A DNA stretch of 64,000 nt from Methylobacterium aquaticum (GTDB lineage Bacteria > Pseudomonadota > Alphaproteobacteria > Rhizobiales > Beijerinckiaceae). Under the pieces are notes generated by a model. It saw nothing but the letters and a program-made list of their open reading frames with translations. It did not search any database and had not been told where the DNA came from. Position numbers and translations under genes: made by a program. The DNA lies in the NCBI RefSeq assembly GCF_016804325.1, contig NZ_CP043627.1, positions 6,851,001 through 6,915,000 of the forward strand, given 5' to 3'. Below are positions 10,120 to 41,154 of this stretch, piece by piece. Position 1 is the first letter of the stretch, and each line of letters begins with the position of its first letter.

Positions 10120-12132
10120 ATGCCGATCCTGACATTTCCCGATGGCGCCACGCGGTCCTTCGACGGCGCCGTGACCGGCCGCACCGTGGTCGAGGGCATC
10201 GCCAAGTCCCTGGCCAAGCGCACCGTGGCGATGGCCATCGACGGCACCGTCCGCGACCTCGACGACACGATCGAGGCGGATGCCCGCATCGAGTTCCTCG
10301 ACCGCACCGACCCGCGGGCGCTGGAGCTGATCCGGCACGATTGCGCCCACGTGCTGGCGGAGGCGGTGCAGTCGCTGTGGCCGGAGACGCAGGTCACGAT
10401 CGGCCCGGTGATCGAGAACGGCTTCTACTACGACTTCCACCGCGAGACCCCGTTCTCGCCGGAGGACTTCCCGGCGATCGAGGCGCGGATGCGCGAGATC
10501 ATCGCCCGCGACGCCCCCTTCACCAAGGAGATCTGGGCCCGCGACGACGTGCGCACGCTGTTCGAGCAGAAGGGCGAGCATTTCAAGGTCGAGCTGGTCG
10601 ACGCGATCCCGCCGGGCGAGGACCTGCGGATCTACCGCCAGGGCGAGTGGTTCGACCTCTGCCGCGGCCCGCACATGACCTCGACGGCCAAGATCGGCAG
10701 CGCCTTCAAGCTGATGAAGGTGGCCGGCGCCTATTGGCGCGGCGATTCGACGAAGCCGATGCTGAGCCGGATCTACGCCACCGCCTGGGCCAACCAAGCC
10801 GATCTCGACGCCTACCTGAACCGCCTCGCCGAGGCCGAGCGCCGCGACCACCGCCGCTTAGGCCGCGAGATGGACCTCTTCCACTTCCAGGAAGAGGGGC
10901 CGGGCGTGGTGTTCTGGCACCCGAAGGGCTGGACCCTGTTCCAGTCGCTGATCGCCTACATGCGCCGGCGCCTGAAGGGCGACTATGCCGAGGTGAACGC
11001 GCCGCAGATCCTCGACAAGGCCCTGTGGGAGACCTCCGGCCACTGGGACTGGTACCGGGAGAACATGTTCGTCACGAAGACCGAGGACGAGCGCGTCTTC
11101 GCGATCAAGCCGATGAACTGTCCCGGCCACGTCCAGATCTTCAAGCACGGCCTGAAGTCGTACCGCGACCTGCCGCTGCGCATGGCCGAGTTCGGCACGG
11201 TCTCGCGCTACGAGCCCTCGGGGGCTTTGCACGGGCTGATGCGGGTGCGGGCCTTCACGCAGGACGACGCCCACGTCTTCTGCACCGAGGACCAGCTCGC
11301 CGCCGAGTGCCTGAAGATCAACGACCTGATCCTCTCGACATACGCCGATTTCGGCTTCGACGAGATCGTGGTGAAGCTCTCGACGCGGCCGGAGAAGCGC
11401 GTCGGATCGGATGCTCTGTGGGACCATGCCGAGGAGGTGATGACCCGGGTGCTCTCCCAGATCGAGGAGCAGTCGGGCGGGCGGATCAAGACCGCGATCA
11501 ACCCCGGCGAGGGCGCCTTCTACGGCCCGAAATTCGAGTACGTGCTGCGCGACGCCATCGGCCGCGACTGGCAATGCGGCACCACGCAGGTCGACTTCAA
11601 CCTGCCGGAGCGGTTCGGCGCGTTCTTCGTCGATGCCGACGGGCAGAAGAAGACCCCGGTGATGGTCCACCGGGCGATCTGCGGCTCGATGGAGCGCTTC
11701 ACCGGCATCCTGATCGAGCATTTCGCCGGCCATTTTCCGCTCTGGCTGGCGCCGCTCCAGGTGGTCGTCGCGACGATCACCGGCGAGGCCGACCCCTATG
11801 CCCGCGAGGTCCTGAAGGCGGCGGATGCCGCGGGCCTGCGGGCCGAGGCCGATCTTCGCAACGAGAAGATCAACTACAAGGTCCGCGAGCATTCCCACGC
11901 CAAGGTGCCGGTGATGCTGGTCGTCGGCCGCAAGGAGGGCGAGGAGCGCACCGTCTCGATCCGCCGCCTCGGCAGCCCGCAGAGCCGCACCCTGCCGCTC
12001 GACCAGGCCTTGGCCGAACTGGTGGCCGAGGCGACCTTCCCGGATCTGCGCCGGGCGCAAGCCGTGGCCGATGCCGTGCCGAGCGAGGGCGTGACGCTCG
12101 ACGGGCAGCACGGCGAAACGCCGGTGCCGTAG
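10120..12132 (+). CDS. thrS: Threonyl-tRNA synthetase
   Basis: A 670-residue class II synthetase. The order is TGS domain (about 1-60), the second editing/SAD domain (about 85-220), the catalytic core, and a C-terminal anticodon-binding domain (about 550-650). The zinc ligand Cys334 sits in KPMNCPGH, and class II motif 2 ([20 protein letters not shown]) and motif 3 ([11 protein letters not shown]) are clear. The editing domain carries [17 protein letters not shown] lies about 13 nt before the ATG. The gene is probably read with or just after yidD, 155 bp upstream. It converges with nhaA across a strong hairpin. Confidence 0.97.
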
Positions 12133-13900: not shown

Positions 13901-14651
13901 ATTGCAGGCCCTCTACGAGGGCGACACCGACCAGGCGCACCGCTTCCGCTACGCCCTGCTCGCCTTCGACGTCGCGACGATCGCCTTCGTGATCGCGACC
14001 TCGTTCCTGCCGCTCTCGCCCTGGATCCTCGCCCTCGACGGAGTGCTCGGGCTCGGGGTGCTGGCGGATTTCCTCGGCCGCCTGATGATCAGCCGGGCGC
14101 CGGCCCGCGAGTTCCTGCGCCTGAGCACCTGGACGGACGTGGTCGCCATCGCCTCCTTCCTGGCGCCGATGTTCGCGGAGGGCGTCGGCTTCCTGCGCAT
14201 CCTGCGCACGCTGCGCCTGTTGCGCACCTACCAATTGCTCGAGCGCCTGCGCCACGACAGTGCGTTCTTCCGGCGCAACGAGGAGGCGATCCTCGCGGCG
14301 ACCAACCTCGTGGTGTTCGTGTTCGTGATGACCGGCGTGGTCTACGTCACGCAGCACCGCACCAATCCGGCGATCGGCAGCCCGGTCGATGCCCTGTACT
14401 TCACCGTCACGTCGCTGACGACAACCGGCTACGGCGACATCACCCTCCCAGGCACGTCCGGACGGCTGATCTCGGTGTTCGTGATGATCTGCGGCGTGAC
14501 GCTGTTCTTCCGCCTCGCCCAGGTGGTGTTCCGGCCCTACAAGGTGCGCTTCCCCTGCCCGACCTGCGGCCTGCAGCGGCACGAGCCCGATGCCGTGCAT
14601 TGCAAGGCCTGCGGCACGACGCTGAACATTCCCGATGAGGGCGCCGACTGA
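13881..14651 (+). CDS. Voltage-gated potassium channel with C-terminal zinc ribbon
   Basis: A 256-residue six-helix Kv-type channel. The S4-like helix carries regularly spaced arginines (RILRTLRLLRTYQLLERLR), and the selectivity filter is TTTGYGD at residues 180-186, followed by S6. The C-terminus is unusual: CPTC (226-229) and CKAC (241-244) form a predicted zinc ribbon instead of a cyclic-nucleotide-binding domain. The true start is taken as the second of two tandem ATG copies, because only this one is in frame. It is divergent from a small membrane-protein gene. Gating ligand unknown. Confidence 0.92.
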   Translation: MSSLKTRLQALYEGDTDQAHRFRYALLAFDVATIAFVIATSFLPLSPWILALDGVLGLGVLADFLGRLMISRAPAREFLRLSTWTDVVAIASFLAPMFAEGVGFLRILRTLRLLRTYQLLERLRHDSAFFRRNEEAILAATNLVVFVFVMTGVVYVTQHRTNPAIGSPVDALYFTVTSLTTTGYGDITLPGTSGRLISVFVMICGVTLFFRLAQVVFRPYKVRFPCPTCGLQRHEPDAVHCKACGTTLNIPDEGAD

Positions 14652-14785
14652 GACCGCTGCGCCGGGAGGGGGCGTTGCGCGGCGACATGATCGGGGTTCG
14701 ACCCCTGAGCGTGCCGTGTGCGGGTCGGCACGGCGAGCGCGGTCCGGTGGGCGTACCAGATGGCCGGCAAGCCAGGACGCACGCC

Positions 14786-15022
14786 ATGTCCGAGATCGTC
14801 TCCGACGTCACCCGCTACGCCATCCGCCGCGACCGGGCCGGCTGGACGGTCTACGACCTGCGCTCCGGGGCGGTCGCGGTCATCGGCGATGTGCTGCAGA
14901 TCGGGCTCGACCGCGACGAGGCCGAGAGCGTCGCGGAGGCTTTCAGCGATGGGCCGCACGCCTCAGCGCTCGCGGGCGTGCTGCCGCGATTCGCGTGGTT
15001 CCAGGCACCGGCCCGTCCGTGA
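14786..15022 (+). CDS. Small conserved hypothetical protein
   Basis: A 78-residue protein starting MSEIVSDVTRYAIRRDRAGW. It reads like a small soluble alpha/beta protein with the pattern WTVYDLRSGAVAVIGDV and LDRDEAESVAEAFSDG. I do not recognise a named family. The internal ATG at 14786 is preferred over 14675 because the sequence upstream of it looks non-coding and Arg/Gly-rich. No strong ribosome binding site is visible. It lies downstream of the channel gene on the same strand, 134 bp away. Confidence 0.55.
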   Translation: MSEIVSDVTRYAIRRDRAGWTVYDLRSGAVAVIGDVLQIGLDRDEAESVAEAFSDGPHASALAGVLPRFAWFQAPARP

Positions 15023-15080
15023 AAGTGTGCTCGACCGGCGCCGTCTTTCGATCCGGCGGGAATAGCGGAATATCCCGACC

Positions 15081-15199
15081 ACTCACCTCATCCTGAGGTG
15101 CGACCGGAGGGAGCCTCGAAGGAGGGCTCCAGAAGCCTCGGCGATCCCTGGAGCCCTCCTTCGAGGCTCACTTCGTTCGCACCTCAGGATGAGGTGAGT
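15081..15199. repeat. R3 palindromic repeat, copy a
   Basis: Outer arms ACTCACCTCATCCTGAGGTG / CACCTCAGGATGAGGTGAGT pair over about 20 bp, and the inner arms CCTCGAAGGAGGGCTCCAG / CTGGAGCCCTCCTTCGAGG also pair. Similar flanking sequence continues to about 15250. Matching copies are at 47408-47535 and, as a remnant, about 41240-41335. The 311-bp gap to the next gene holds only this repeat and its flanks. Confidence 0.9.
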
Positions 15200-15333
15200 A
15201 GGTAGGAGGATCCTGCCCGCCTCAAGTCTTGGGTAGAAGTCTTGCTCAATCAAGTTGTCAGGATGAGGCTGGAGGACAGGAATCTCGGCTTTCCGGAACG
15301 TCCAAAAATCGGGCCTCTCCCGAAACTGCGAGA

Positions 15334-16089
15334 TCAGGCCCGAAACCCCTCGAACACCATCTGATCGGCATGCGCCCGCGCCAGCCGCACCTGCGCCTCG
15401 GTCCTGACCGTCCAGGTCATCACCGGCATGCGCCCGAGCAGACGGCAGAGATGGGTCGCGGCGTTGGGCAGGTCGTCGACGCGCCAGGACAGGAAGTCCG
15501 GGCGGCTCTCGGAGACATGCAGCAGGTTCGCCAGCCCGTGCCGTTGCGCCTCGGTGAGGGCGGCATAGGCCGGATCGTCGTGGCGGCTCTCCGCCACGAT
15601 CCCGCGGGGAATCCCCGGCGCGAGGTCGGCCAGCGCCCCGACGATCACGGGATCGAACGATTTCAGCGCCACCGGGCCGTCATAGGCGGCGACGATCTCG
15701 GCGGTGCGGTGCGCCAGGGCGAGGTCGCCGTCGTGCCGGGTCTTCACCTCGATCACCAGCGGCGTGCGGCCGGCGATTCTTGCCAAGAACTCCGACAGGG
15801 TCGGGACGCGCTCGGCGCTGCCGAGCACCGTCAATTGCCCGAGGTCGGCGGCGTCGCGCTCGCGCACGAGCCCGTCGGCCCCGGTGAGCCGGCCTAGGCC
15901 GGCATCGTGGAACACCATCGCCTCGCCGTCCCGGCTGAGCTGGACGTCGCACTCGATCGCGTAGCCGCCACCGATCGCGGCCTCGGCGGCGGCGATCGTG
16001 TTCTCGGGAATGCCGGCGGCGCGGTCGTGCAGGCCGCGATGGGCGATCGGGCGGGCGGTCAGCCAGCCGGGGGCGAGGCGCTCGGACAT
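15334..16089 (-). CDS. Glycerophosphodiester phosphodiesterase
   Basis: A 251-residue GDPD-family TIM barrel that hydrolyses deacylated phospholipids to glycerol-3-phosphate and an alcohol. The catalytic pair of histidines is seen in IAHRGLHD and VFHDAGLGR, and metal-binding residues are in PENTIAA and [19 protein letters not shown] and [11 protein letters not shown] are further family blocks. There is no signal peptide, so it is likely cytosolic like UgpQ. It starts 4 bp after the stop of the RidA gene and is probably cotranscribed with it. Confidence 0.93.
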
Positions 16090-30543: not shown

Positions 30544-31710
30544 CTACGCCACTCCACCACCCCCCGCCGCCGGCACCGCCGCGATCCCGGCCCCCGCCGC
30601 CCACACCCCCAGATCCTGCTTGCGGATCGCCGCCGCCATCATGTCGGGGAAGAGGTCCGGCGTGCAGGCAAACGAGGGCACCCCGAGGGCGGCGAGACGG
30701 GCGGCGAGCGCCCGGTCGTAAGCAGGCGCACCCTCGTCGGAGAGGGCCAGCAAGACGACCACCTGCACGCCGGCGGAGACCAGGCGCTGCGCCTGCGCCA
30801 GCAGCCCGGCCTCCACCCCGCCCTCGTAGAGATCGGAGATCAGCGCCAGCACCGTGTCCTCGGGCCGGGTGATCCGCGACGCGCAATAGCCCACTGCCCG
30901 GTTGATGTCGGTGCCGCCGCCGAGCTGGACTGAGAACAGAACCTCGACCGGATCGTCCAGCTCGTCGGTCAGGTCCACCACCTGGGTGTCGAACACCACG
31001 AGCCGCGTCGAGACCGCGGGAAGGGACGCCATCACCGCCCCGAAGATGCTCGAATAGACCACCGAATTCGCCATCGAGCCGGATTGGTCGATGCACAGGA
31101 TTACGTCTTTCAGCGACCCGCGGCTCTTGCGGCCGTGGCCGAGGCGGGTTTCCGGGATGATGGTGCGGTATTCGGCCTGGTAGTGGCGCAGGTTCGCCCG
31201 GATGGTGCGGTGCCAGTCGATCTCGGCGTGGCGCGGCCGGCGGTTGATGCTGGCGCGATCGATCGCCCCGTTGACCGCCTGGCGGACCGGCTCCTCCAGC
31301 CGCTTCATCAGCTCGTCCACCACCTTGCGCACCACGAGGCGGGCGGTCTCCCTGGTGCGCCCGCCGAGCAGGCCGCGCATCGAGATCAGGGTCGAGACGA
31401 GGTTCACGTCGGGCTGGAGCGCGTCCAGCATCTCCGGCTCGGTCAGCATCCGCTTGAGGTCGAGCCGCTCGAAGGCGTCGCGCTGCATCACCTGGACGAC
31501 GGAGGCCGGGAAGTAGTCGCGGATGTCGCCGAGCCAGCGCGGGACGGAGGGGGCGGAGGCGCCGAGGCCCCCCTTGCGGTCGGAATCGTAGAGGGCGCCC
31601 AGCGCCCGGTCGAGGCGCAGGTCGCGCTCGCCCAAGGTGCAGCCGGTCCCCTCCGCGGCCCCGCCGCCGAGGACGAGGCGCCAGCGGCGCAGGCGTTCGG
31701 TCTCGCTCAT
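30544..31710 (-). CDS. VWA domain protein, CoxE/MoxR-partner type
   Basis: A 388-residue cytosolic protein with a C-terminal von Willebrand A domain. The MIDAS metal site is Asp208, Ser210 and Ser212 in LCIDQSGSM, with the Thr-containing GGGTDINRAV loop and the third Asp in LISDLYEG. The N-terminal half (about 1-190) is helical and similar to VWA partners of MoxR ATPases, which hand substrates or cofactors to the AAA+ ring. The ATG overlaps the stop of the DUF5682 gene by 4 bp. It is the last gene of the five-gene block. The Ala/Gly-rich tail looks unstructured. Confidence 0.88.
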   Translation of the reverse strand: MSETERLRRWRLVLGGGAAEGTGCTLGERDLRLDRALGALYDSDRKGGLGASAPSVPRWLGDIRDYFPASVVQVMQRDAFERLDLKRMLTEPEMLDALQPDVNLVSTLISMRGLLGGRTRETARLVVRKVVDELMKRLEEPVRQAVNGAIDRASINRRPRHAEIDWHRTIRANLRHYQAEYRTIIPETRLGHGRKSRGSLKDVILCIDQSGSMANSVVYSSIFGAVMASLPAVSTRLVVFDTQVVDLTDELDDPVEVLFSVQLGGGTDINRAVGYCASRITRPEDTVLALISDLYEGGVEAGLLAQAQRLVSAGVQVVVLLALSDEGAPAYDRALAARLAALGVPSFACTPDLFPDMMAAAIRKQDLGVWAAGAGIAAVPAAGGGGVA

Positions 31711-34004
31711 GCGGCGTCTCCAGCGGTCGTCGTGGGCGCGAGCAGCAGGCGCAGGATCGGCAGCACGCCCGCGGCCCGCCTGGCATCGAATCCCTCCGGC
31801 CCCTCCGCGCCGGGGGCGGCGCCCCCCGGACGGGCCAGGGCCTCGCCGATGGCCCGGCGCTCGGCCGGGGCGAGGGTCGCGAAGGTGCGGCGCACCAGCG
31901 GCAGCAGCTCGGTGAACAGGGCCTCGTCGAGGCCGGCGAGCCACCCGTCGACGATGCCGAGCAGGCCCTGGCCGTGGATCAGGACCGGGCCGCTCTCCTC
32001 CAGGAAACCCTCGATCCAGGCGGCGGCCGGCACGGCGCCGGCGGCCCGCGACAGGGCGAGATGCAGGCGGGTGCCGGCCTCTTCGGCATCGATGGCGCGG
32101 TCGTCGAACAGCAGCCGTACGGCCCGGCCGACGACGCGGCCATGGACGTGGTCCTGGTCGGCGAGCGCCCGCAAGGCGTCCTGCCAAGCCGCCTTCAACT
32201 CCGGGTCTTCCAGCAGGGCGACCGCGCCCGAGACGGCGACGATGCGCTTTTTCGCGGCTTGCGCGGCATCGTCGTCGAGGCTCTGGCAGGCGGCGACGAG
32301 GCCGGCGGCGGCCCGGGGCACCAGGCCCCGCACCAGCGCCAGGACCGGCTCGGTGTCCGAGGAACGCACCGAGCCGTAGCGGGCAAGTTCGGCGAGGGCC
32401 GGCAGCGCGTCCATCAGGTCGAACACGTCGGCCGAGACCGCGGCGCGGTCGTCGAGCGCCCGGACCACCTGCGCCGTCGCCTCGGGCAGGTCGGCATCGA
32501 GCAGCGTCCCGACGAGGCCCGACAGCTCGGCGACGCGCTGCGCCCCCCGGGCCCGGGTCTTCACCCGGGAGGCGGCGGCCTCCGCCACGGTGCCGCCTTC
32601 GGCCGAGGCCGCCACCAGCTCCACCACCCAGTCCGGCTGCCAGGCGAGGAACCACGCCTCCTTGAAGGTGCCGCGCCCGCGCGCCTCGCGCCGCGTGCCC
32701 CAGGGCACGCCGATCAGCGCCAGCCGGTTGAGGAAGTGGCTGCGGGCGAGATCGGTCTCCTTGCGCAGGTCGAGGACGAGGTCGCCGGCCGCCGCGCCGG
32801 GCTTCAGCCGCAGGCGCCTGCACTGCGCCTCGAAATCCGCCTCCACCGGCGTGCCGGGGCTGTCGGGCGGGGTGGCGCCGAGCCGCTCGCCGATGACGAG
32901 CTTGCGCCGGATCAGCCCCATCGGCGCCGGGTCGGCGAAGCAGAGGGTCGCCTGCGTCGCCTCGTCGAGGTCGTCGAGGGAGGGGCGGGACCGCCCGCGG
33001 AACGCCGCCAGGGCCTCGGCGAGGCGCGCCGCCTCGATCACCGAGGCCGGCGAGGCGTCGAGGTCTTCCGCGCGCAGGAGCGCGGCGGCCCGGGCCAGCC
33101 AGCGGGCGGCGACCCGGCCCTCGTGGTGCCACAGCGTGTCGTACCACTCGGGAGACAGAACCCCGGCGCGGTAGCCGGAGGCCGAGGCCAGCCGCTCGTA
33201 GGACCAGGGCGCCCAGGCAGCCGCGACCTTGGTCTTCGGTAGACCCTTGAGCACGGCGTTGTCGGCGGAGGCCTGGCCCTTGGCATCGTGGCGGGCGAGC
33301 GCCGGCACGTGCCAGGCGCCGCAGATCACGGCGATCTTCGAAAAATCCTCCTTGGCGGCCTTGCGGATCGCCGCCCGCATATGGGCCTCGCGGGCCTCCT
33401 CGCGCAGACCGTCCACCGGATCGGGCTCGGGCACGTCGCGTAGGGAGCCCATCGCCTCGGCGATCGCCGCGAACACGTCGCCGTCGGCGCCGGCCCGGCT
33501 CTCCACCAAGGCGTCCCACCAGCGCTCGCCGTCCGGATAGCCGGCGGCGGCGGCGAGTTCCCCGAGGGGATCGCGGCGGATCGCGGCCGGGGCCGGCACC
33601 GGTCCCGGCGCCTCCTCCGCCGCGTCGGCGACCGGCTCGGCCTCGATCGGCGCGGCATCGCCCTCCGGGGCTCTCCCGAACCCGTCGGCGAGCTGGATCG
33701 CCTGCGGCAGGTCGATGAAGCGGATCGCGGCGCCCGCCGCCAGCCCGTGGCGCATCGCCACCCATTCGGGCGAGAAGGCCGCGAAGGGGAAGAACGCGCA
33801 GTCGCGCGGCCGGTCGGGCCGGTAGACGAGGAGCGCCACCGGCGGCGCCATCGCCTCGTGCGCGGCGAGCGGGATCAGCGCGTCGGCATCCGGCGGCCCC
33901 TCGATCAGCAGGCAGTCGGGCGCGAAGTCGATGAGCGCCGCCCGCAGCGAGCGGGCCGAGCCGGGGCCGTGGTGGCGGATGCCGAAGAGGCGGATGTCGG
34001 GCAT
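31707..34004 (-). CDS. DUF5682 protein, TraB/ChaN/EreA-like N-terminus
   Basis: A 765-residue protein of DUF5682. The N-terminus reads RLFGIRHHGPGSARSLRAAL followed by PDCLLIEGPPDAD, a His-rich loop then a conserved Glu, closely resembling the metal-site pattern of TraB/ChaN/EreA hydrolase-like proteins. About 228-238, ICGAWHVPAL recalls the second His motif of that fold. The large C-terminal part (about 350-765) is helical with HEAT-like character. It has no signal peptide or membrane segment. It is coupled to the VWA gene. The catalytic assignment is my inference; the DUF call is from memory of the family motif. Confidence 0.8.
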   Translation of the reverse strand: MPDIRLFGIRHHGPGSARSLRAALIDFAPDCLLIEGPPDADALIPLAAHEAMAPPVALLVYRPDRPRDCAFFPFAAFSPEWVAMRHGLAAGAAIRFIDLPQAIQLADGFGRAPEGDAAPIEAEPVADAAEEAPGPVPAPAAIRRDPLGELAAAAGYPDGERWWDALVESRAGADGDVFAAIAEAMGSLRDVPEPDPVDGLREEAREAHMRAAIRKAAKEDFSKIAVICGAWHVPALARHDAKGQASADNAVLKGLPKTKVAAAWAPWSYERLASASGYRAGVLSPEWYDTLWHHEGRVAARWLARAAALLRAEDLDASPASVIEAARLAEALAAFRGRSRPSLDDLDEATQATLCFADPAPMGLIRRKLVIGERLGATPPDSPGTPVEADFEAQCRRLRLKPGAAAGDLVLDLRKETDLARSHFLNRLALIGVPWGTRREARGRGTFKEAWFLAWQPDWVVELVAASAEGGTVAEAAASRVKTRARGAQRVAELSGLVGTLLDADLPEATAQVVRALDDRAAVSADVFDLMDALPALAELARYGSVRSSDTEPVLALVRGLVPRAAAGLVAACQSLDDDAAQAAKKRIVAVSGAVALLEDPELKAAWQDALRALADQDHVHGRVVGRAVRLLFDDRAIDAEEAGTRLHLALSRAAGAVPAAAWIEGFLEESGPVLIHGQGLLGIVDGWLAGLDEALFTELLPLVRRTFATLAPAERRAIGEALARPGGAAPGAEGPEGFDARRAAGVLPILRLLLAPTTTAGDAA

Positions 34005-34086
34005 CGTCGCTGAGAGCCTGTTTGACCGTGTGTGCGGATCGTCCCACCCGCGATCCCGGAGCCTGTCCGATTGGTCTCGACGGTCT

Positions 34087-34250
34087 CGAAACCCTCCATG
34101 TCATTCCGGGGCCGCGAAAGCGGAACCCGGAATCCAGAACCGCAGGTGTGAAAGGATAGAGCGGAACGCGATCCGCCTTTTTCTGCACTCTCGGCGGCTC
34201 TGGATTCCGGGTTCCGCTGCGCGGCCCCGGAATGACATGGAGGGTTCGAG
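34087..34250. repeat. R2 palindromic repeat, copy b
   Basis: The clearest R2 copy: outer arms read CCCTCCATGTCATTCCGGGG and the inverse, and inner arms CCGGAATCCAGA / TCTGGATTCCGG. It occupies the middle of the 349-bp gap between the DUF5682 and MoxR genes. If it terminates, the five-gene block would be two transcription units. Confidence 0.9.
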
Positions 34251-34353
34251 ATCCGGAAGAGACCAAACGAGCACGAACCCGGGATGAGGTCGTGGGTGGG
34301 AGAGATGTGTGAGGCTGCCGAATCGACGGATATCGATCGGACGGCCCGCGGGC

Positions 34354-35460
34354 TCACGCGCTCGCGCGGGCCGCCTTGTAGAAATCCTTCCAGCCCTCGC
34401 GCTCCTTGACCACGGTCTCGAGGTATTCGCGCCAGACGATCGCGTCCTGGACCGGGTCCTTCACCACCGCGCCCGAGATGCCCGATACGAGGTCGTGCGC
34501 CGAGAGGCGGCCGTCGCCGAAATGCGCGGCGAGCGCCAGCCCGCTGCCGACGACGCTGATCGCCTCCGCCGTCGAGAGCGTACCGGAGGGCTGCTTGACC
34601 TTGCTCTTGCCGTCCACCGTCACGCCCTCGCGCAACTCGCGGAAGATCGTGACGACGCGGCGGATCTGGTCGGCGCCGGGCGGCTCGGCCGGGATCTCGA
34701 AGGCGCGCCCCAACGACGCCACCCGGGTCTCCACGATGGCGATCTCCGCCTCGATCGTCGCCGGCGGCGGCAGCACCACGGTGTTGAAGCGGCGCTTGAG
34801 CGCGCTCGACAATTCGTTGACGCCGCGGTCGCGGTTGTTCGCCGTCGCGATGAGGTTGAAGCCCTTCTGCGCCGGCACCTCCTCGTTCAGTTCGGGGATC
34901 GGCAGGGTCTTCTCGGAGAGGATGGTGATGAAGCTGTCCTGCGTCTCCGAGGGGATGCGGGTCAGCTCCTCGACCCGGGCGATGCGGCCCTCGTTCATCG
35001 CCCGCATGATCGGCGAGCCGACCACCGCCTCGCGGCTCGGCCCCTTGGCGAGCAGCAGCGCGTAGTTCCAGCCGTAGCGGATCGCCTCCTCGCTGGTGCC
35101 GGCGGTGCCCTGGACGATCAGCCGCGAGGTCCCGCAGATCGCCGCCGCCAGGTGCTCGCTGACCCAGCTCTTGGCGGTGCCGGGCACGCCGAGCAGCAGC
35201 AGCGCCCGGTCGGTGGCGAGGGTGGCCACCGCCACCTCCATCAGGCGCCGGTCGCCGATGTATTTCGGCGTCACCGCGAAGCCGGAGGCGAGCGTGCCGC
35301 CGAGAAGGTAGGTGACGACCGCCTGCGGCGACATCTGCCAGTTCGGCGGGCGCGGCCGGTCGTCGGCCTGCCGCAGGGCGGCGATCTCCTCGGCGAAGGC
35401 ATCCTCGGCGGCTTGCCGAAGCTGAGAGACCTGGCGCGACTGCGCAGCTTTGATGGTCAT
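34354..35460 (-). CDS. MoxR-family AAA+ ATPase
   Basis: A 368-residue AAA+ protein of the MoxR group. Walker A is GVPGTAKS (91-98). The Walker B strand reads RVEELTR (162-168), with catalytic Glu in the EE pair. Sensor 1 is IATANNRDRG, and the SSALKRRF segment supplies the arginine finger. MoxR ATPases form rings that remodel or activate proteins with VWA partners, as in cofactor insertion and, in some systems, defence. It lies 39 bp downstream of the DUF5691 gene and probably shares its transcript. Confidence 0.93.
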   Translation of the reverse strand: MTIKAAQSRQVSQLRQAAEDAFAEEIAALRQADDRPRPPNWQMSPQAVVTYLLGGTLASGFAVTPKYIGDRRLMEVAVATLATDRALLLLGVPGTAKSWVSEHLAAAICGTSRLIVQGTAGTSEEAIRYGWNYALLLAKGPSREAVVGSPIMRAMNEGRIARVEELTRIPSETQDSFITILSEKTLPIPELNEEVPAQKGFNLIATANNRDRGVNELSSALKRRFNTVVLPPPATIEAEIAIVETRVASLGRAFEIPAEPPGADQIRRVVTIFRELREGVTVDGKSKVKQPSGTLSTAEAISVVGSGLALAAHFGDGRLSAHDLVSGISGAVVKDPVQDAIVWREYLETVVKEREGWKDFYKAARASA

Positions 35461-35499
35461 CCTCGGGCTGTCTCCTCGGTGCGGGTCAGGCTGTGGGCG

Positions 35500-37056
35500 T
35501 CATTGCTGGAATTCGCGCCGGATCGCGACGCGCAGCTCCAGTGTCTCGGCCAGGGTGGTGACCTGCTGGCGCAGGCGGTCGTGGCCCTCGTCCTTCGGCA
35601 GCCGCGCGCCAAGGGCGCCGGCCGTGGCCGCGATGTCCTCGCCCGGCCACAGCCGCTCGCCGAGGCGGGCGATCAGCCAGGGTTTGGCGAGGTCGCGCCG
35701 CAGATTCTCGGAGCCGCGGATGACGAAGGCGAGCCAGTCGATCACGACGGCGCTGAACCGTTCGGAGAAGGCATCCGGGCCCTTCTCCAGCATCGCCAGC
35801 ACCACCTCGATCTTGCGGGCGTGGATCAGCCCGGTCACCCGCGCCTCCCATTCGGGTCCGGGCAGCAGGTCGATGGCCTCTACCCACCGGCGGAGGAGTT
35901 CGTTGGTGCGCCGGATACCGGACAGCTTGCCCTCGTAGGCCTCGGCGAGCCCGTCGGCGATCTGCGTCGTCCAAGCCGGGTCGCCGTCGCGGGCGACCGC
36001 CGAGAACAACCCTCGCAGGATCGGCTCGGCCCATTCGCTGCGCAGGGCGAGTTCGATCCAGAGCCGCGGCGGATGGCCCGAGAAGGCATGGAGCGGGGCG
36101 GCCGCCAGGATGTCCCGCAGCAGGCCGGCCCGGATGCCGCCGCCGCGCTGTTCCCAGGCATTCGGGGCGACGCCGTCGCGGGCGAGCGTCGGGGATTCCT
36201 GCGGCAGGGTGACGACCAGTTCGTGCGTCGTGCTCCGCAGCAGGCGGGCCTTGCTCTCGATGACGAGCGCGGCCGTCGCCCGGACCGCCATGCGCGAGGC
36301 GAAGAGCGAGCGGGGCAGGCGCGGCAGCAGGCGCTGCGCGGCCTCGCGGACGCCCGCGGCGCGGTCGTCGAGGCAGGTTTCGAGGAAGGGGCCGTCGGCG
36401 TCCGACAGTCCGGTCCACAGGGCGCCGACCAGGGCCGTACGGGTCTCCGCCTTCTCCTTGCGGAACACCGCCTCGAGCGCCGTCCGCGCGCCGTCCGGGT
36501 CGCGGGCGCGGAAGGCCGCGAAGGCGGCGCGGCGCTCAGGCAAGCTGCCCTCGGTCCAGTCGGCCGGGGCATCGGCCGAAGGACCGTCCTGCTCCCCGCC
36601 GCAGGCGGCGGCGAGCCAGGCGAGGTCCGGGCCGATGACGGCGCCGGCCGATTCCGGCAGGTTGCCCGCCTGGAGCATCAGCGCCTGGTGGAGCCAGGCG
36701 GGCGGGCGTACCTGCAACGAGGCGGCGAGGTCGAACCATTCGCGCAGGCGCTCGCGCCCGGCGTGGCCGCCGGTGAGGAGGGCATGGAGCCGGTTCGCCG
36801 CGGCCGGCGGGCATTCGGGCCCGGCCGTCTCGCGGACCGCCAGCGGTTCCATCGCGCCGGGCGCGAGGTCGAGCCCGGCGAGGTGGTGGATGCCGTGGAG
36901 CGCCAGCCGCGCCAGGAGCGCGCTGCCGGGATCGGACTCGGTCACGAGATCCGCCAGGGGGCCGGGGGCGGCAGGCGGGGCGCGCCCGGCGCCGAGCAGG
37001 GCGGCGGCCAGGATCGGCTCCCAGCCGTCGGCGACGAGGTCGGTCGGGTCGGTCAT
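35500..37056 (-). CDS. DUF5691 domain protein
   Basis: A 518-residue protein that I assign to DUF5691 from its position and motifs. It is helical, with HEAT-like pairs of helices over about 200-518, including TRTALVGALWTGLSDADGPF and FASRMAVRATAALVIESKARL, read in part. No catalytic motif is obvious. The start at 37056 is an ATG 16 bp after the SWIM gene stop, with GAGG directly before it. A scaffold or adaptor role for the MoxR/VWA pair is plausible but not shown. Confidence 0.72.
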   Translation of the reverse strand: MTDPTDLVADGWEPILAAALLGAGRAPPAAPGPLADLVTESDPGSALLARLALHGIHHLAGLDLAPGAMEPLAVRETAGPECPPAAANRLHALLTGGHAGRERLREWFDLAASLQVRPPAWLHQALMLQAGNLPESAGAVIGPDLAWLAAACGGEQDGPSADAPADWTEGSLPERRAAFAAFRARDPDGARTALEAVFRKEKAETRTALVGALWTGLSDADGPFLETCLDDRAAGVREAAQRLLPRLPRSLFASRMAVRATAALVIESKARLLRSTTHELVVTLPQESPTLARDGVAPNAWEQRGGGIRAGLLRDILAAAPLHAFSGHPPRLWIELALRSEWAEPILRGLFSAVARDGDPAWTTQIADGLAEAYEGKLSGIRRTNELLRRWVEAIDLLPGPEWEARVTGLIHARKIEVVLAMLEKGPDAFSERFSAVVIDWLAFVIRGSENLRRDLAKPWLIARLGERLWPGEDIAATAGALGARLPKDEGHDRLRQQVTTLAETLELRVAIRREFQQ

Positions 37057-37072
37057 CCTCGGTTCCCTGCCT

Positions 37073-38446
37073 TCAGGCGACGTGCAGCAGCACGGCTTGC
37101 GCGGCCTGCGCGGGCATCGCGTAGAGGCGGCCCCCGGTCGCCAGCGCCAGCGGGGTGAGACCGTGGCCGTCATGCAGGCCGAACAGGTCGACCGGGCGCC
37201 CGCCCGCCACCGCGAGCAGGCTCGGCAGGCGCGGATCGGCCCGCAGGGGCAGGCAGCCGGTCCCGTCGCCGGCCGCGAAGGCGACCGCGCCGCCCGCCTG
37301 CCCCGGCAGCCGGCCGAGGCGCACCCCGGCGAGCCGGACCGGCCAGCTTTCGGTCCAGGGCGCCCGGGCCAGCACCTCCGCGAAGGTGTCTCGCGCCGCC
37401 GCGACGCTGCCGCCGCCGGGCAGGCCGGGCTCCGACGCCGGGCCTGCCCGGCCCTCGCGAAACACCGCCCGCAGGGGTGGATCGCCGGGATGGAAGGCAA
37501 GGCTCCCCGAAAAATCCTGGCCAGCGGCGGGCACCGGGGGCAGGGGCGAGCCGGCGGTGCCGTAATCGAGCACCTGCGCGACGGCGCCGGAGCGGCGGCC
37601 GACGAGCCAGACCGAGCGGGCGGTCAGCCGGTCCTCCTCCTCGATCGCGTGGGCGAGCACCGCCCAGTCGTCGGTCCGGTCCGGCCGGGCCGCCATCTCC
37701 TCGGCGGTGACCGGATAGCCGAGCGCCGCGCGCAATCCCGCCGCCTGCTCGGGCGCCAGGGCATCGAGCCGGCGCGCGGCGCGCACCAGGAGGGCGATGC
37801 GCCCGAGCGCCAGGCCCAAGGCCGCCTCCGGCCGGGCCGCGCCGGCCTGCGGCGCCGCCGCGACCAGCCCCGGCAGGGCGCGCACCCGGCGGGCGAGGCC
37901 GGAGGCCTGCCCGTCGACGAGGCGCCCGGCCATGCGGTCCCAGAAGGCGTAGGGCTCGGCGCGGGCCGCCGCCAGGCCGCGGCGCATCAGGTCGCGCAGC
38001 CAGAGGTCCAGCTCGTCGAGGGCTCCCGCGACCTTCTCCTCGCGGGCCTGGCGGCGCCGGACCTGCGCCTTCTCGTCGACGGGCTTGGCCGGCTCGGCAG
38101 CCTTCGTCTCCGCCGCCGCGGCGCGGCTCTCGCGGCCCCTGGTCCAGGCCGCGACCCAGTCCGGCGGCTCGGCCTCCGCCAGGGCGGCGGCGGCATCGAC
38201 CAGCATCAGGCCGATGCCGTGCTTGCAGGGGAACTTCCGGCTTGGGCAGGTGCATTTCGAGGCCGGCCCGGCGAGGTCCGCGACGGTGCGGTAGGGGCTC
38301 GCGCCGCTGCCCTTGATCTCGCCCCAGATCACCGATCCGGCCCGGCCGAGCCCGCTCCATTTCGCCGGCTTGGCCTGGTCCTGCCCGGCCTTGCGGCTCG
38401 CGGCATCGGGGGCGAGGTCGAGGATTTGCGCAGTCGTCAGGCTCAT
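37073..38446 (-). CDS. SWIM zinc finger protein
   Basis: A 457-residue protein with an N-terminal SWIM zinc finger, C-x-C-x6-C-x-H: Cys65, Cys67, Cys74, His76 in KCTCPSRKFPCKH. A Lys/Ala/Glu-rich linker (about 105-145) follows, then a long helical region with WF/DRM blocks and a C-terminal part of unknown fold. SWIM domains bind nucleic acid or protein. The ATG at 38446 is chosen because the SWIM module starts right after it. It is the first gene of the block, so the complex might be targeted to DNA, RNA or a protein by this subunit. Confidence 0.88.
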   Translation of the reverse strand: MSLTTAQILDLAPDAASRKAGQDQAKPAKWSGLGRAGSVIWGEIKGSGASPYRTVADLAGPASKCTCPSRKFPCKHGIGLMLVDAAAALAEAEPPDWVAAWTRGRESRAAAAETKAAEPAKPVDEKAQVRRRQAREEKVAGALDELDLWLRDLMRRGLAAARAEPYAFWDRMAGRLVDGQASGLARRVRALPGLVAAAPQAGAARPEAALGLALGRIALLVRAARRLDALAPEQAAGLRAALGYPVTAEEMAARPDRTDDWAVLAHAIEEEDRLTARSVWLVGRRSGAVAQVLDYGTAGSPLPPVPAAGQDFSGSLAFHPGDPPLRAVFREGRAGPASEPGLPGGGSVAAARDTFAEVLARAPWTESWPVRLAGVRLGRLPGQAGGAVAFAAGDGTGCLPLRADPRLPSLLAVAGGRPVDLFGLHDGHGLTPLALATGGRLYAMPAQAAQAVLLHVA

Positions 38447-38712
38447 GCGGCGGTTGGCTGTCTGTCCGTGCATCATGTCCGAGGTGCGGCGCAGTCTGCA
38501 CGAAACGATCTCGCAGGCAACCCCGGCCTGCGGCGCAAGAACAGGGTTCGCTCGACTTTAAATCAATTCCAGGAATGGTCTTGGGGTCTGGACAGCAGGT
38601 CGTTTGCCGGCTCGGGCGAAGGGATATGAAGCCGGCGATCGTCTTGTGCGCGCCTCAAGACGACGCTCCGGCATGGCGCTGGTTTGCGGGAAAGCAGCAC
38701 TGCTGCGAACGA

Positions 38713-38848
38713 ACCCTTCCCCCTCCCGGGGCGGGCGGCGGGCGGGAGAGGGGAGCCACGCGTTCAGGCGAAGCAGACCCGTTCTGACCGGCGCCCTGCG
38801 GATCGGGGTCGCGCCGCCCCTCTCCCGACCCCGCCGACGAGGGGTTCG
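38713..38848. repeat. R4 palindromic repeat, copy c
   Basis: Contains CCTTCCCCCTCCCGGGGCGGG and GGGAGAGGGGAGCC on the left and CCCCTCTCCCGACCCC on the right. It is shorter than copies a and b. It lies in the 624-bp gap upstream of the SWIM gene; nothing else in that gap looks coding. Confidence 0.75.
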
Positions 38849-39070
38849 TGCTCCCGGCTGTCGCGCCTCCACCCCGCGGCCTCCTGCGCCGCTCGGCGAC
38901 GGCGACGGCTGCGGCATCTCGCCGTTGCGCCCGGCCCGCGCATCACCCGACGGGGCCGAGAGGAATGTCGTCCGCGGCCATTGCCGCGCCCTTTGACCGT
39001 CCCACCTGTCGTCGGACGGCTTCGATACGGGGCGCGTCCTCGAGGCGCCCCTCCGGCAAGGGAGAGACAG

Positions 39071-39415
39071 ATGGTCGATACCGATCGCATCACCGGCGCG
39101 GCGCGCGAGATCGGCGGCAAGGCGCAGGCCGCCCTCGGGGACCTGGCGGGCGACCGCCGGGCCCAGGTCGAGGGCCGGTTCCGCGAGGCGCAGGGGCAGG
39201 CCGAGAGCCTGGCCGGCCAGGCCCGCGACGGCCTGCGCGACGCCGCCGACACCGCCATCGACTACGCCGAGGATGCCTACGAGCGCGGGCGCCACGCGGC
39301 GCAGCGCGGCACCCGCACGGTGACCCACGCCGTCGAGGAAACCCCGCTCCTCGCGCTGCTCGTCGCGGGGGCCGTCGGCTACGGCCTCGCGCTCCTGGTG
39401 CATGGGCGCCGCTAG
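39071..39415 (+). CDS. CsbD-like protein with C-terminal membrane anchor
   Basis: A 114-residue protein with a CsbD-type N-terminus (DRITGAAREIGGKAQAALGDL), a long amphipathic middle and a C-terminal hydrophobic helix (PLLALLVAGAVGYGLALLV) with a basic end. Its plan is the same as the protein at 24541-24912, suggesting a paralogous pair of membrane-anchored stress proteins. GGAGAGACAG gives a strong ribosome binding site. Its TAG stop codon is part of the left end of R1 copy B. Confidence 0.82.
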   Translation: MVDTDRITGAAREIGGKAQAALGDLAGDRRAQVEGRFREAQGQAESLAGQARDGLRDAADTAIDYAEDAYERGRHAAQRGTRTVTHAVEETPLLALLVAGAVGYGLALLVHGRR

Positions 39416-40108: not shown

Positions 40109-40924
40109 TTACTTGACCGTCTTACCGTCCGCGGTCGCGGCCGAGTGCTGGGAAGCGGGCCTGGCGGCGCTGCCCGTCACGCCGGCCTTCGGGAGGCCGA
40201 TCGCGTCGATCACGTCGAAGTGCATCCCGTCCTCCGCGGTCTTCAGCGCGGCATTCGCCTCGTAATACTTGCCCTGGTTGATCAGCGCGGCCGCCTGGTT
40301 CACGTCGGCGGTGGTCTTGTCGAGGGGCAGGACCGCCATGACGAAGTTCACGTCGACATGGGCGAGCCGCAGCTTCTCGATGGCGCCCTTCTGGTCGCCC
40401 TTGGCGAGGCTCTTGTTCGCCTCGGTCACGGCCGAGGCTTTCTCGGGCGTCGCGATGAAGTCTTCGCCGAGCGTCATCTGGGCATCGACGGGCACCCAGG
40501 CGACCTTGTCCTTGGACGCCGGCTTCGCCTCGGCTGTCTTGGCATCGGTAGTCTTGGCATCGGCAGTCTTGTCGGTCTTCGCCGTCTTGGCTGTCGCCAT
40601 GTCCGCCGGCGTCTTCAGCTCCGACTCGGCCTTGAGGAACACGGCGTCGTCGGTCTTCGCCTTGGTGAGGGCGGCCTGCGCCTTGGCGATTAGGCTCTTG
40701 GCCTGGGACGGGTCGGCGTCGAAGATGGCGATGCGGGCGAGATGCATGTCGCGGAACGCCTGGGCGCCGTCCTTCGAGAGCTTGCCGACATCCTGGTCGA
40801 CCGCCCGCTGGGCCGCGTTCTCCTGCGTCGCCGCCGGCTTGGTCGCCTGCTCGGTCGCATAGGCGGCGCCTCCGAGGAATGTCGTGGCGACGAGAGCGAC
40901 AGCGAGAGATTTCCGGTAGGACAT
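40109..40924 (-). CDS. YfdX family protein
   Basis: A 271-residue exported protein with a signal peptide (KSLAVALVATTFLGGAAYA). The YfdX family core is split: residues about 40-100 (DVGKLSKDGAQAFRDMHLAR) and about 150-250 (WVPVDAQMTLGEDF, then AIEKLRLAHVDVNFVMAVLP). In between is a low-complexity Lys/Thr/Ala/Asp linker of TAKTAKTDK and DAKTTDAKT type (about 112-140). YfdX is acid- and stress-linked in enterobacteria and reported to act as a periplasmic chaperone; here only the family is clear. AGAGGAGG precedes the ATG. Confidence 0.88.
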   Translation of the reverse strand: MSYRKSLAVALVATTFLGGAAYATEQATKPAATQENAAQRAVDQDVGKLSKDGAQAFRDMHLARIAIFDADPSQAKSLIAKAQAALTKAKTDDAVFLKAESELKTPADMATAKTAKTDKTADAKTTDAKTAEAKPASKDKVAWVPVDAQMTLGEDFIATPEKASAVTEANKSLAKGDQKGAIEKLRLAHVDVNFVMAVLPLDKTTADVNQAAALINQGKYYEANAALKTAEDGMHFDVIDAIGLPKAGVTGSAARPASQHSAATADGKTVK

Positions 40925-41154
40925 GGCATGCCTCCTCTTGAAATCGATGCCGACTTTGTTTGCGGCATCAGCGCGTTGGCGACATTCAGATAATACACCG
41001 ATGTGAACCGGGTTGCTGAATGACTTCATTAAAAGGTCGTAACGCCACGGAAAGGGATGACGTCGGGGGCCGGCAACCGGCAACCGGCACCTGGCGGCAG
41101 GCCGTGCGGCGGCGCCGGCCAGCATGACTCGGGCGGCGCTCCTCCGACCCTCCT

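What the first reader, a model, noticed from the sequence alone, without database searches (positions are those of the whole stretch)
30544..38446. Five-gene SWIM / DUF5691 / MoxR / DUF5682 / VWA block of unknown function
Seen: five adjacent minus-strand genes with short gaps or overlaps (16 bp, 39 bp, 4-bp overlap), interrupted only by a repeat between the MoxR and DUF5682 genes. Known: MoxR AAA+ ATPases work with VWA proteins to remodel or activate client proteins, and related pairs occur in some conflict systems. Inference: the SWIM zinc finger recognises nucleic acid or a protein, MoxR and VWA supply an ATP-driven switch, and DUF5682 is the effector. No methanol dehydrogenase or CO dehydrogenase client lies nearby, so the usual cofactor-insertion role is not supported by context. 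It may be a stress, quality-control or defence complex.
Basis: partly seen in the sequence, partly recalled or inferred. Interest (0 to 1): 0.72.

Follow-up and report, generated by a model that had tools for sequence, protein, structure and literature searches.

The report
Widespread DNA-damage-linked AAA+ gene cluster
The five genes are a real, old and patchily spread operon, already named ddrTUVWX in radiation-resistant Deinococcus where radiation switches it on, and one of its proteins appears to carry a hydrolase-like fold that the motor proteins may control; what it does in the cell is still unknown.

Summary
SWIM, DUF5691, MoxR, DUF5682 and VWA genes form one minus-strand operon at 30544-38446 with the stated spacings. 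Of 80 DUF5682 loci kept from a genome scan, 63 hold all five genes and 62 of those keep this order on one strand, over about 12 phyla.

It is not a new system. It matches ddrTUVWX, an operon of unknown function that is radiation-induced under IrrE/DdrO control in Deinococcus deserti. The window's MoxR is 69% identical to the D. taeanensis copy. It is also related to E. coli yehLMPQ (MoxR to YehL, DUF5682 to YehM). A DUF4132 protein (YehI type) is a recurrent extra partner.

New here: the N-terminal 300 residues of DUF5682 are predicted to have a TIKI/EreA/ChaN hydrolase-like fold with near-invariant His, Glu and His.

Best guess: a MoxR-VWA motor that matures or gates a TIKI-fold effector in a DNA-damage or stress response. 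The effector role, and any damage link outside Deinococcus, are inferred; upstream LexA/RDRM scans gave no support.

Defence is not supported: no PADLOC hit, no defence enrichment in flanks, no variable effectors. No cofactor client was found linked.

The parts
37073..38446 (-). SWIM zinc-finger protein, DdrT-like (ORF can start at 38476); finger CTCPSRKFPCKH
   Evidence: Pfam SWIM 21.9 bits; 40% identical over 462 columns to the D. taeanensis SWIM protein; CxC-CxH pattern in 74 of 77 relatives
35500..37056 (-). DUF5691 protein, DdrU-like (518 aa); not modelled
   Evidence: Pfam DUF5691 254.8 bits (run on 513 of the 518 residues); only a short weak BLASTP match to the D. taeanensis copy, E 2e-06; fused to SWIM in 3 of 62 SWIM proteins measured
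34354..35460 (-). MoxR-type AAA+ ATPase, DdrV/YehL-like; Walker A GVPGTAKS
   Evidence: AAA_5 131.5 bits; 69% over 352 columns to D. taeanensis, 40% over 347 columns to YehL, only a 23-residue match to RavA
34090..34246 (.). dispersed palindromic repeat in the MoxR-DUF5682 gap; not part of the system
   Evidence: inverted arms of 27 nt, 100% complementary; 80 matches in the own genome counting both strands
31707..34004 (-). DUF5682 protein, DdrW/YehM-like (765 aa)
   Evidence: Pfam DUF5682 852.9 bits; 43% over 756 columns to D. taeanensis, 27% over 508 columns to YehM; AlphaFold2 pLDDT 88.0
33105..34004 (-). DUF5682 N-terminal domain (residues 1-300), predicted TIKI/EreA/ChaN-like fold; near-invariant R10 H11 H12, E35, E80, R205, G229, H232
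31824..32630 (-). DUF5682 C-terminal helical solenoid (residues 459-727)
30544..31710 (-). VWA (CoxE-type) protein, DdrX/YehP-like, DQSGS motif
   Evidence: VWA_CoxE 175.5 bits; 53% over 377 columns to D. taeanensis, 37% over 369 columns to YehP

Best explanation
The block is a ddrTUVWX-type operon, related to E. coli yehLMPQ. Its products most likely form one machine. A MoxR ATPase ring (DdrV) couples through its VWA partner (DdrX) to DdrW (DUF5682), which carries a TIKI/EreA-type hydrolase-like domain plus a helical solenoid. ATP-driven remodelling by DdrV-DdrX matures or gates DdrW. DdrT, with its SWIM zinc finger, and DdrU recruit the complex to its target or signal, probably nucleic acid or a damaged complex; DUF4132 proteins do a related job in many lineages. 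The machine serves a DNA-damage or similar stress response. SHOWN: gene content, order, orthology and spread (here); radiation induction in D. deserti (published). PREDICTED: the TIKI-like fold. INFERRED: the physical complex, gating of DdrW, nucleic-acid recruitment, and any damage role outside Deinococcus.
For: Operon order in 62 of 63 complete loci. D. taeanensis locus L024 has SWIM-DUF5691-AAA-78 aa ORF-DUF5682-VWA; its species paper says ddrTUVWX is present with an extra 78-residue ORF between ddrV and ddrW (PMC9510100, passage), which fixes the gene-to-name mapping. D. deserti: Deide_18730 (SWIM) >10-fold and three further operon genes >5-fold radiation-induced, IrrE-dependent, with an RDRM (PMC5552922, passages). 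TIKI-like fold of DUF5682 residues 1-300. MoxR-VWA pairs remodel targets and insert metal (NorQD; PMC13036017, abstract).
Against: No upstream LexA or RDRM support: strict patterns hit 1 of 66 regions and not the window; a loose RDRM scan gives 4 of 66 regions at 5 or fewer mismatches against 5.0 expected from shuffles, window best 6. These scans are weak: they use consensus letters I recalled, and the D. taeanensis site itself scores only at chance level. Deide_18700, by order DdrW itself, does not occur in the main text of PMC5552922. The TIKI match is structural only: Foldseek E 0.12 at best in the PDB, 4e-3 in the viral set, no Pfam TraB match. Only three of the four 2His/2Glu positions have an obvious counterpart. 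17 of 80 loci lack at least one gene in the stretch held; L053, L055, L066 and L086 show DUF5682 alone. The own genome has no DUF4132 match. No complex was modelled.
Confidence: 0.42

Rival explanations
1. Maturation chaperone: MoxR and VWA insert a metal or other cofactor into an enzyme, either DUF5682 itself or an unlinked client; the damage link is incidental to Deinococcus.
For: The MoxR-VWA pair NorQD does this (PMC13036017, abstract); ChaN in the same fold list binds haem (title of 2g5g); DUF4132/MolR has an old molybdate label (PMC8533742, passage).
Against: No client gene recurs: among the longest 130 of 148 flank proteins from 15 loci no Pfam family matches more than 3 proteins, and those with 3 are DUF4132, FGE-sulfatase and common kinase, AAA and AraC domains (25 of 140 families shown). 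D. radiodurans moeA and moeB did not change on DdrO depletion (PMC8533742, passage).
Confidence: 0.26
2. Nucleic-acid repair or quality-control complex: SWIM and DUF4132/WGR bind damaged DNA or RNA, MoxR-VWA remodel it, and DUF5682 is a non-catalytic scaffold.
For: A WGR domain on a DUF4132 partner (L123, 62.7 bits); listed among the most induced genes with recA, ruvB, ssb and uvrB in D. deserti (PMC5552922, passages).
Against: Near-invariant polar residues of DUF5682 fit TIKI-like active-site positions by order, which a pure scaffold would not need; no nuclease or ligase domain was found in the five proteins.
Confidence: 0.17
3. Anti-phage or other conflict system related to the VMAP/bpMoxR ternary systems.
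For: Patchy spread: 20 of 61 genomes; plasmid copies; TIKI-fold enzymes include toxic effectors (PMC6254334, passages); the Iodobacter type B locus sits beside type I restriction genes.
Against: bpMoxR profile below its cut-off (20.5 versus 27); no profile of a VMAP-type third component among the Pfam matches; VWA tails of at most 16 residues in 71 loci; no PADLOC hit; flank PADLOC families 35 versus 45 in controls; no relative confirmed in IMG/VR.
Confidence: 0.1

Closest known systems
ddrTUVWX operon of Deinococcus (Deide_18730 to Deide_18690; D. taeanensis TS293)
   Same: Same five families in the same order; against D. taeanensis 40% (T), a short weak match (U), 69% (V), 43% (W), 53% (X).
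   Different: No RDRM seen upstream in the window; no 78-aa ORF between MoxR and DUF5682; a dispersed repeat lies in that gap.
E. coli yehLMPQ with yehI (DUF4132)
   Same: MoxR, DUF5682, VWA and SWIM proteins; YehL 40%, YehP 37%, YehM 27%.
   Different: SWIM gene last; no DUF5691 signal in YehQ (hhalign probability 0.1%) and only a weak one to the type A SWIM protein (23%); DUF4132 gene upstream; the DUF5682 tree puts the two types on two sides of a branch with support 100.
NorQ-NorD, CbbQ, CoxD-CoxE and other MoxR-type maturation pairs (names partly recalled)
   Same: AAA_5 ATPase plus VWA_CoxE partner.
   Different: No client enzyme found linked; three further conserved partners.
VMAP and other MoxR-vWA ternary conflict systems (PMC7159879, passages)
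   Same: MoxR-vWA core with a further conserved component.
   Different: No VMAP profile, no C-terminal effectors on VWA, bpMoxR profile below cut-off.
TIKI/TraB/EreA/ChaN superfamily
   Same: Predicted fold of DUF5682 residues 1-300; near-invariant His, Glu and His at comparable places.
   Different: No Glu two residues before the first His; a long C-terminal solenoid; operon with MoxR-VWA.

Membership tests
ddrTUVWX operon family | Five genes SWIM, DUF5691, MoxR, DUF5682, VWA in this order on one strand | tested here: met
IrrE/DdrO radiation response (RDR) regulon | RDRM palindrome upstream of the first gene | tested here: inconclusive
   none in 400 nt upstream in the window by a strict pattern; best loose match 6 mismatches of 17, no better than chance; the scan also fails to single out the D. 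taeanensis copy, so it is insensitive
YehL subfamily of MoxR ATPases | Closer to YehL than to RavA and other MoxR proteins | tested here: met
   40% over 347 columns to YehL; only a 23-residue match to RavA; a tree of 33 rows groups types A and B apart from six other proteins, with weak support
E. coli-type yeh operon (type B) | DUF4132 gene beside MoxR and SWIM gene last | tested here: not met
   no DUF4132 match in the own genome
VMAP/bpMoxR ternary conflict systems | bpMoxR profile above cut-off | tested here: not met
   20.5 versus 27 bits
VMAP/bpMoxR ternary conflict systems | Variable effector domains fused C-terminal to vWA | tested here: not met
   0 of 71 VWA proteins have more than 16 residues beyond the profile
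TIKI/TraB/EreA/ChaN superfamily (DUF5682 N-terminal domain) | TIKI fold (central beta sheet flanked by helices) | tested here: met
TIKI/TraB/EreA/ChaN superfamily (DUF5682 N-terminal domain) | 2His/2Glu catalytic set | tested here: inconclusive
   near-invariant H11/H12, E35 and H232; no Glu two residues before the first His; E80 and D98 (16 of 16) are alternatives; no residue-level structural alignment was seen
Pfam TraB_PrgY_gumN (PF01963) | Profile match in DUF5682 | tested here: not met
   not among Pfam matches at E up to 1; no match in the own genome
MoxR cofactor-insertion systems | Linked client enzyme | tested here: not met
   no recurrent client among 130 flank proteins; eight window neighbours unrelated
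Known anti-phage defence systems (PADLOC) | Match to a PADLOC model | tested here: not met
   0 of 5 proteins at E up to 0.01

The most novel reading that the evidence does not exclude
ddrTUVWX and yehLMPQ are two branches of one pan-bacterial damage-response machine in which a MoxR-VWA motor switches on a TIKI-fold protease or hydrolase (DUF5682), with SWIM and DUF4132/WGR proteins as sensors of damaged nucleic acid. That would be an ATP-gated hydrolase response, separate from SOS, present in E. coli K-12 itself.
Probability: 0.18. Interest if true: 0.88.

Novelty: new member of a known kind. Interest (0 to 1): 0.57.

Why it matters
It turns five 'unknown' genes into a testable question. The same kind of machine sits in radiation-resistant Deinococcus (named, induced, unexplained), in E. 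coli K-12 (yehLMPQ, easy genetics) and in Methylobacterium relatives. A predicted hydrolase-like site in DUF5682 gives point mutations to test. If right, it would explain long-uncharacterised E. coli genes and an unexplained part of the Deinococcus radiation regulon together.

Tried and rejected
Defence reading: PADLOC on the five; flanks of 15 loci versus 15 control stretches of the same genomes (the longest 130 of 148 flank and of 152 control proteins were scanned; genes were picked mechanically, longest open frame first); IMG/VR (26 pattern hits, none a relative). No signal, but the control is small and most families counted are paralogous models matching one protein.

LexA/RDRM control: strict patterns in 66 upstream regions, window included, gave one hit (L057). 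Loose scans were at chance: RDRM 4 regions at 5 or fewer mismatches against 5.0 in shuffles, window 6; E. coli LexA consensus window 10 of 20. In the E. coli locus a relaxed LexA-like pattern gave 9 matches (shuffle mean 3.6, none of 100 shuffles reached 9), none of them within 300 nt upstream of yehI or yehL; the full consensus gave none at 3 mismatches. A stretch 7 mismatches from it lies at 6448-6467 of L021, just before yehF, the WGR-family gene at the molR end of the cluster; PMC8533742 says MolR was described as a LexA-regulon member (passage). Best within 300 nt of yehH, yehI and yehL is 9, 10 and 9. The RDRM-like site of D. taeanensis (begins 36 nt before the SWIM start) is likewise not significant by score.

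YehQ as a SWIM plus DUF5691 fusion: nothing by hhalign. Foldseek of the whole DUF5682 model in the PDB gave mostly helical-repeat chains, so the N-terminal domain was folded alone. YbaP as a way to name the Tetrahymena chain found no TraB structure; I recall, but could not verify, that it is TraB-like. The D98 column was mis-mapped and was read instead from alignment A2. In the MoxR tree one outgroup (L152) is probably read in the wrong frame, L148 was not recovered, and only 15 type A rows plus the window were used. In the DUF5682 tree L027, L028 and short pieces were left out.

Full report
WHAT IS THERE. Five minus-strand genes fill 30544-38446: SWIM 37073-38446, DUF5691 35500-37056, MoxR 34354-35460, DUF5682 31707-34004, VWA 30544-31710. 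Pfam confirms each. The window has Walker A (GVPGTAKS), the VWA motif DQSGS and the SWIM finger CTCPSRKFPCKH; the simple patterns hold in 83 of 101, 93 of 97 and 74 of 77 relatives. The repeat between MoxR and DUF5682 is a palindrome with 80 matches on the two strands of the own genome, so it is genomic background. Eight neighbouring genes scanned are unrelated: HSP70-like, NMT1-type binding protein, luciferase-like monooxygenase, acyl-CoA dehydrogenase, CsbD, YfdX, SDR, patatin.

CONSERVED UNIT. Of these 80, 63 hold all five genes in the fetched stretch and 62 of the 63 have them in this order on one strand; L056 is the exception. Seventeen lack at least one gene, many at contig ends, but L053, L055, L066 and L086 show DUF5682 alone. 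The type A rows carry the phylum names Pseudomonadota, Bacteroidota, Actinomycetota, Chloroflexota, Planctomycetota, Cyanobacteriota, Melainabacteria, Acidobacteriota, Verrucomicrobiota, Armatimonadota, Thermomicrobiota and Thermodesulfobacteriota, to which the D. taeanensis plasmid adds Deinococcota. Among 61 genomes (own plus 60 relatives) DUF5682 is in 20 and DUF5691 in 17, and all 17 also have DUF5682. Among 398 genomes of the phylum, 14 have DUF5682. Copies are in 27 plasmid records, some of them chromosome-sized. It is old and patchy, and probably mobile.

TWO ARCHITECTURES. Type A is the window's order. Type B is DUF4132-MoxR-DUF5682-VWA-SWIM, as in E. coli yehI-yehK-yehL-yehM-yehP-yehQ and Iodobacter. 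Pfam DUF4132 was confirmed for E. coli YehI, L106 and L123. In type A the DUF4132 gene follows VWA by 12-23 nt in five Bacteroidota loci, L054, L079, L084, L091 and L106. In the 61 genomes the three with YehM-type DUF5682 (G002, G029, G035) all have DUF4132; the other two with DUF4132 (G044, G045) have no DUF5682. Thirteen of 25 type A genomes reached through loci have DUF4132 somewhere. The DUF5682 tree puts A (93 rows) and B (12 rows) on two sides of a branch with support 100.

IT IS ddrTUVWX. D. taeanensis locus L024 has SWIM, DUF5691, AAA, a small ORF (11765-12001, 78 codons), DUF5682 and VWA. The species paper states that ddrTUVWX is present with a 78-residue ORF between ddrV and ddrW (PMC9510100, passage). 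That fixes T=SWIM, U=DUF5691, V=MoxR, W=DUF5682, X=VWA. Window identities to it are 40% (T), a short weak match (U, E 2e-06), 69% (V), 43% (W) and 53% (X). In D. deserti Deide_18730 is in the >10-fold and Deide_18720, 18710 and 18690 in the >5-fold radiation-induced, IrrE-regulated class; Deide_18700, by order DdrW, does not occur in the main text (PMC5552922, passages). The paper's table lists the operon with an RDRM in four of seven species (D. deserti, gobiensis, maricopensis, peraridilitoris) and not in D. radiodurans. In D. radiodurans the DUF4132 gene DRA0166 and the WGR gene DR2173 are strongly up on DdrO depletion (PMC8533742, passage). No paper in the library holds DUF5682 or DUF5691. 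Of two papers holding two or more of yehL, yehM, yehP and yehQ, the one I opened lists them in a deletion. The YehL subfamily of MoxR is recognised (PMC3893208, introduction passages). I found no paper linking ddrTUVWX to yehLMPQ in searches; I opened only some of the papers listed, and the library lacks most subscription journals.

AGAINST THE DAMAGE LINK OUTSIDE DEINOCOCCUS. Strict LexA/RDRM patterns hit 1 of 66 upstream regions, not the window; loose scans are at chance. E. coli shows no good LexA site within 300 nt upstream of yehH, yehI or yehL; a weak one precedes yehF. These scans use recalled consensus letters and do not single out even the D. taeanensis copy, so they neither support nor exclude damage control. 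Damage control is a published Deinococcus fact and elsewhere a hypothesis.

AGAINST DEFENCE. No PADLOC match. Flank proteins of 15 loci match 35 PADLOC families at E up to 1e-10, control proteins of the same genomes 45 (130 proteins each). VWA tails are uniform. The 'Bacteriophage sp.' record with MoxR-DUF5682-VWA is an unverified gut scaffold.

MECHANISM. The NorQD study proposes that a MoxR ring twists and stretches a linker of its VWA partner and so enables metal insertion into the target (PMC13036017, abstract). I place DdrV-DdrX in that role and DdrW as the target-effector, because its gene lies between theirs in 62 of 63 complete loci and it is the one non-ATPase protein in which I found an enzyme-like site; DUF5691 and the SWIM protein were not modelled. 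My odds: identity as a ddrTUVWX-type operon about 0.95; the mechanism as a whole 0.42; a catalytic DUF5682 perhaps 0.4.

Noticed in passing
window 34090-34246: Dispersed palindromic repeat, 80 matches on both strands of the own genome; a REP/MITE-like family.
   Followed up: partly
L027 (E. coli plasmid NZ_CP103756): The yehI-yehLMPQ block and its chromosomal neighbours lie between IS26 copies beside resistance genes on a conjugative plasmid, probably an IS26 capture of chromosomal DNA.
   Followed up: no
L028 (MT835988, 'Bacteriophage sp.'): A 14-kb gut scaffold labelled phage holds MoxR-DUF5682-VWA; probably bacterial DNA.
   Followed up: partly
L025 (Methylosinus plasmid) 14220-15388: VWA homology is spread over three reading frames in an IS-rich region; the gene looks broken.
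   Followed up: no
L124 (unnamed same-genus genome G028): The operon copy looks degraded: split DUF5691 and DUF5682 matches, stop codons inside one piece.
   Followed up: no
G460 and G473 genomes: Nine and ten DUF4132 matches in one genome, several clustered; an expanded family.
   Followed up: no
L024 11765-12001 and L023 11374-11985: A 78-aa ORF (D. taeanensis) and a 203-aa ORF (Hymenobacter) lie between the MoxR and DUF5682 genes.
   Followed up: no
L021 6448-6467: Weak LexA-like stretch just before yehF (WGR family), at the molR end of the E. coli yeh cluster.
   Followed up: partly
window 38684-39412 and 40109-41125: CsbD-like and YfdX-like genes just upstream of the operon; both names are stress-associated in my recall.
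   Followed up: no
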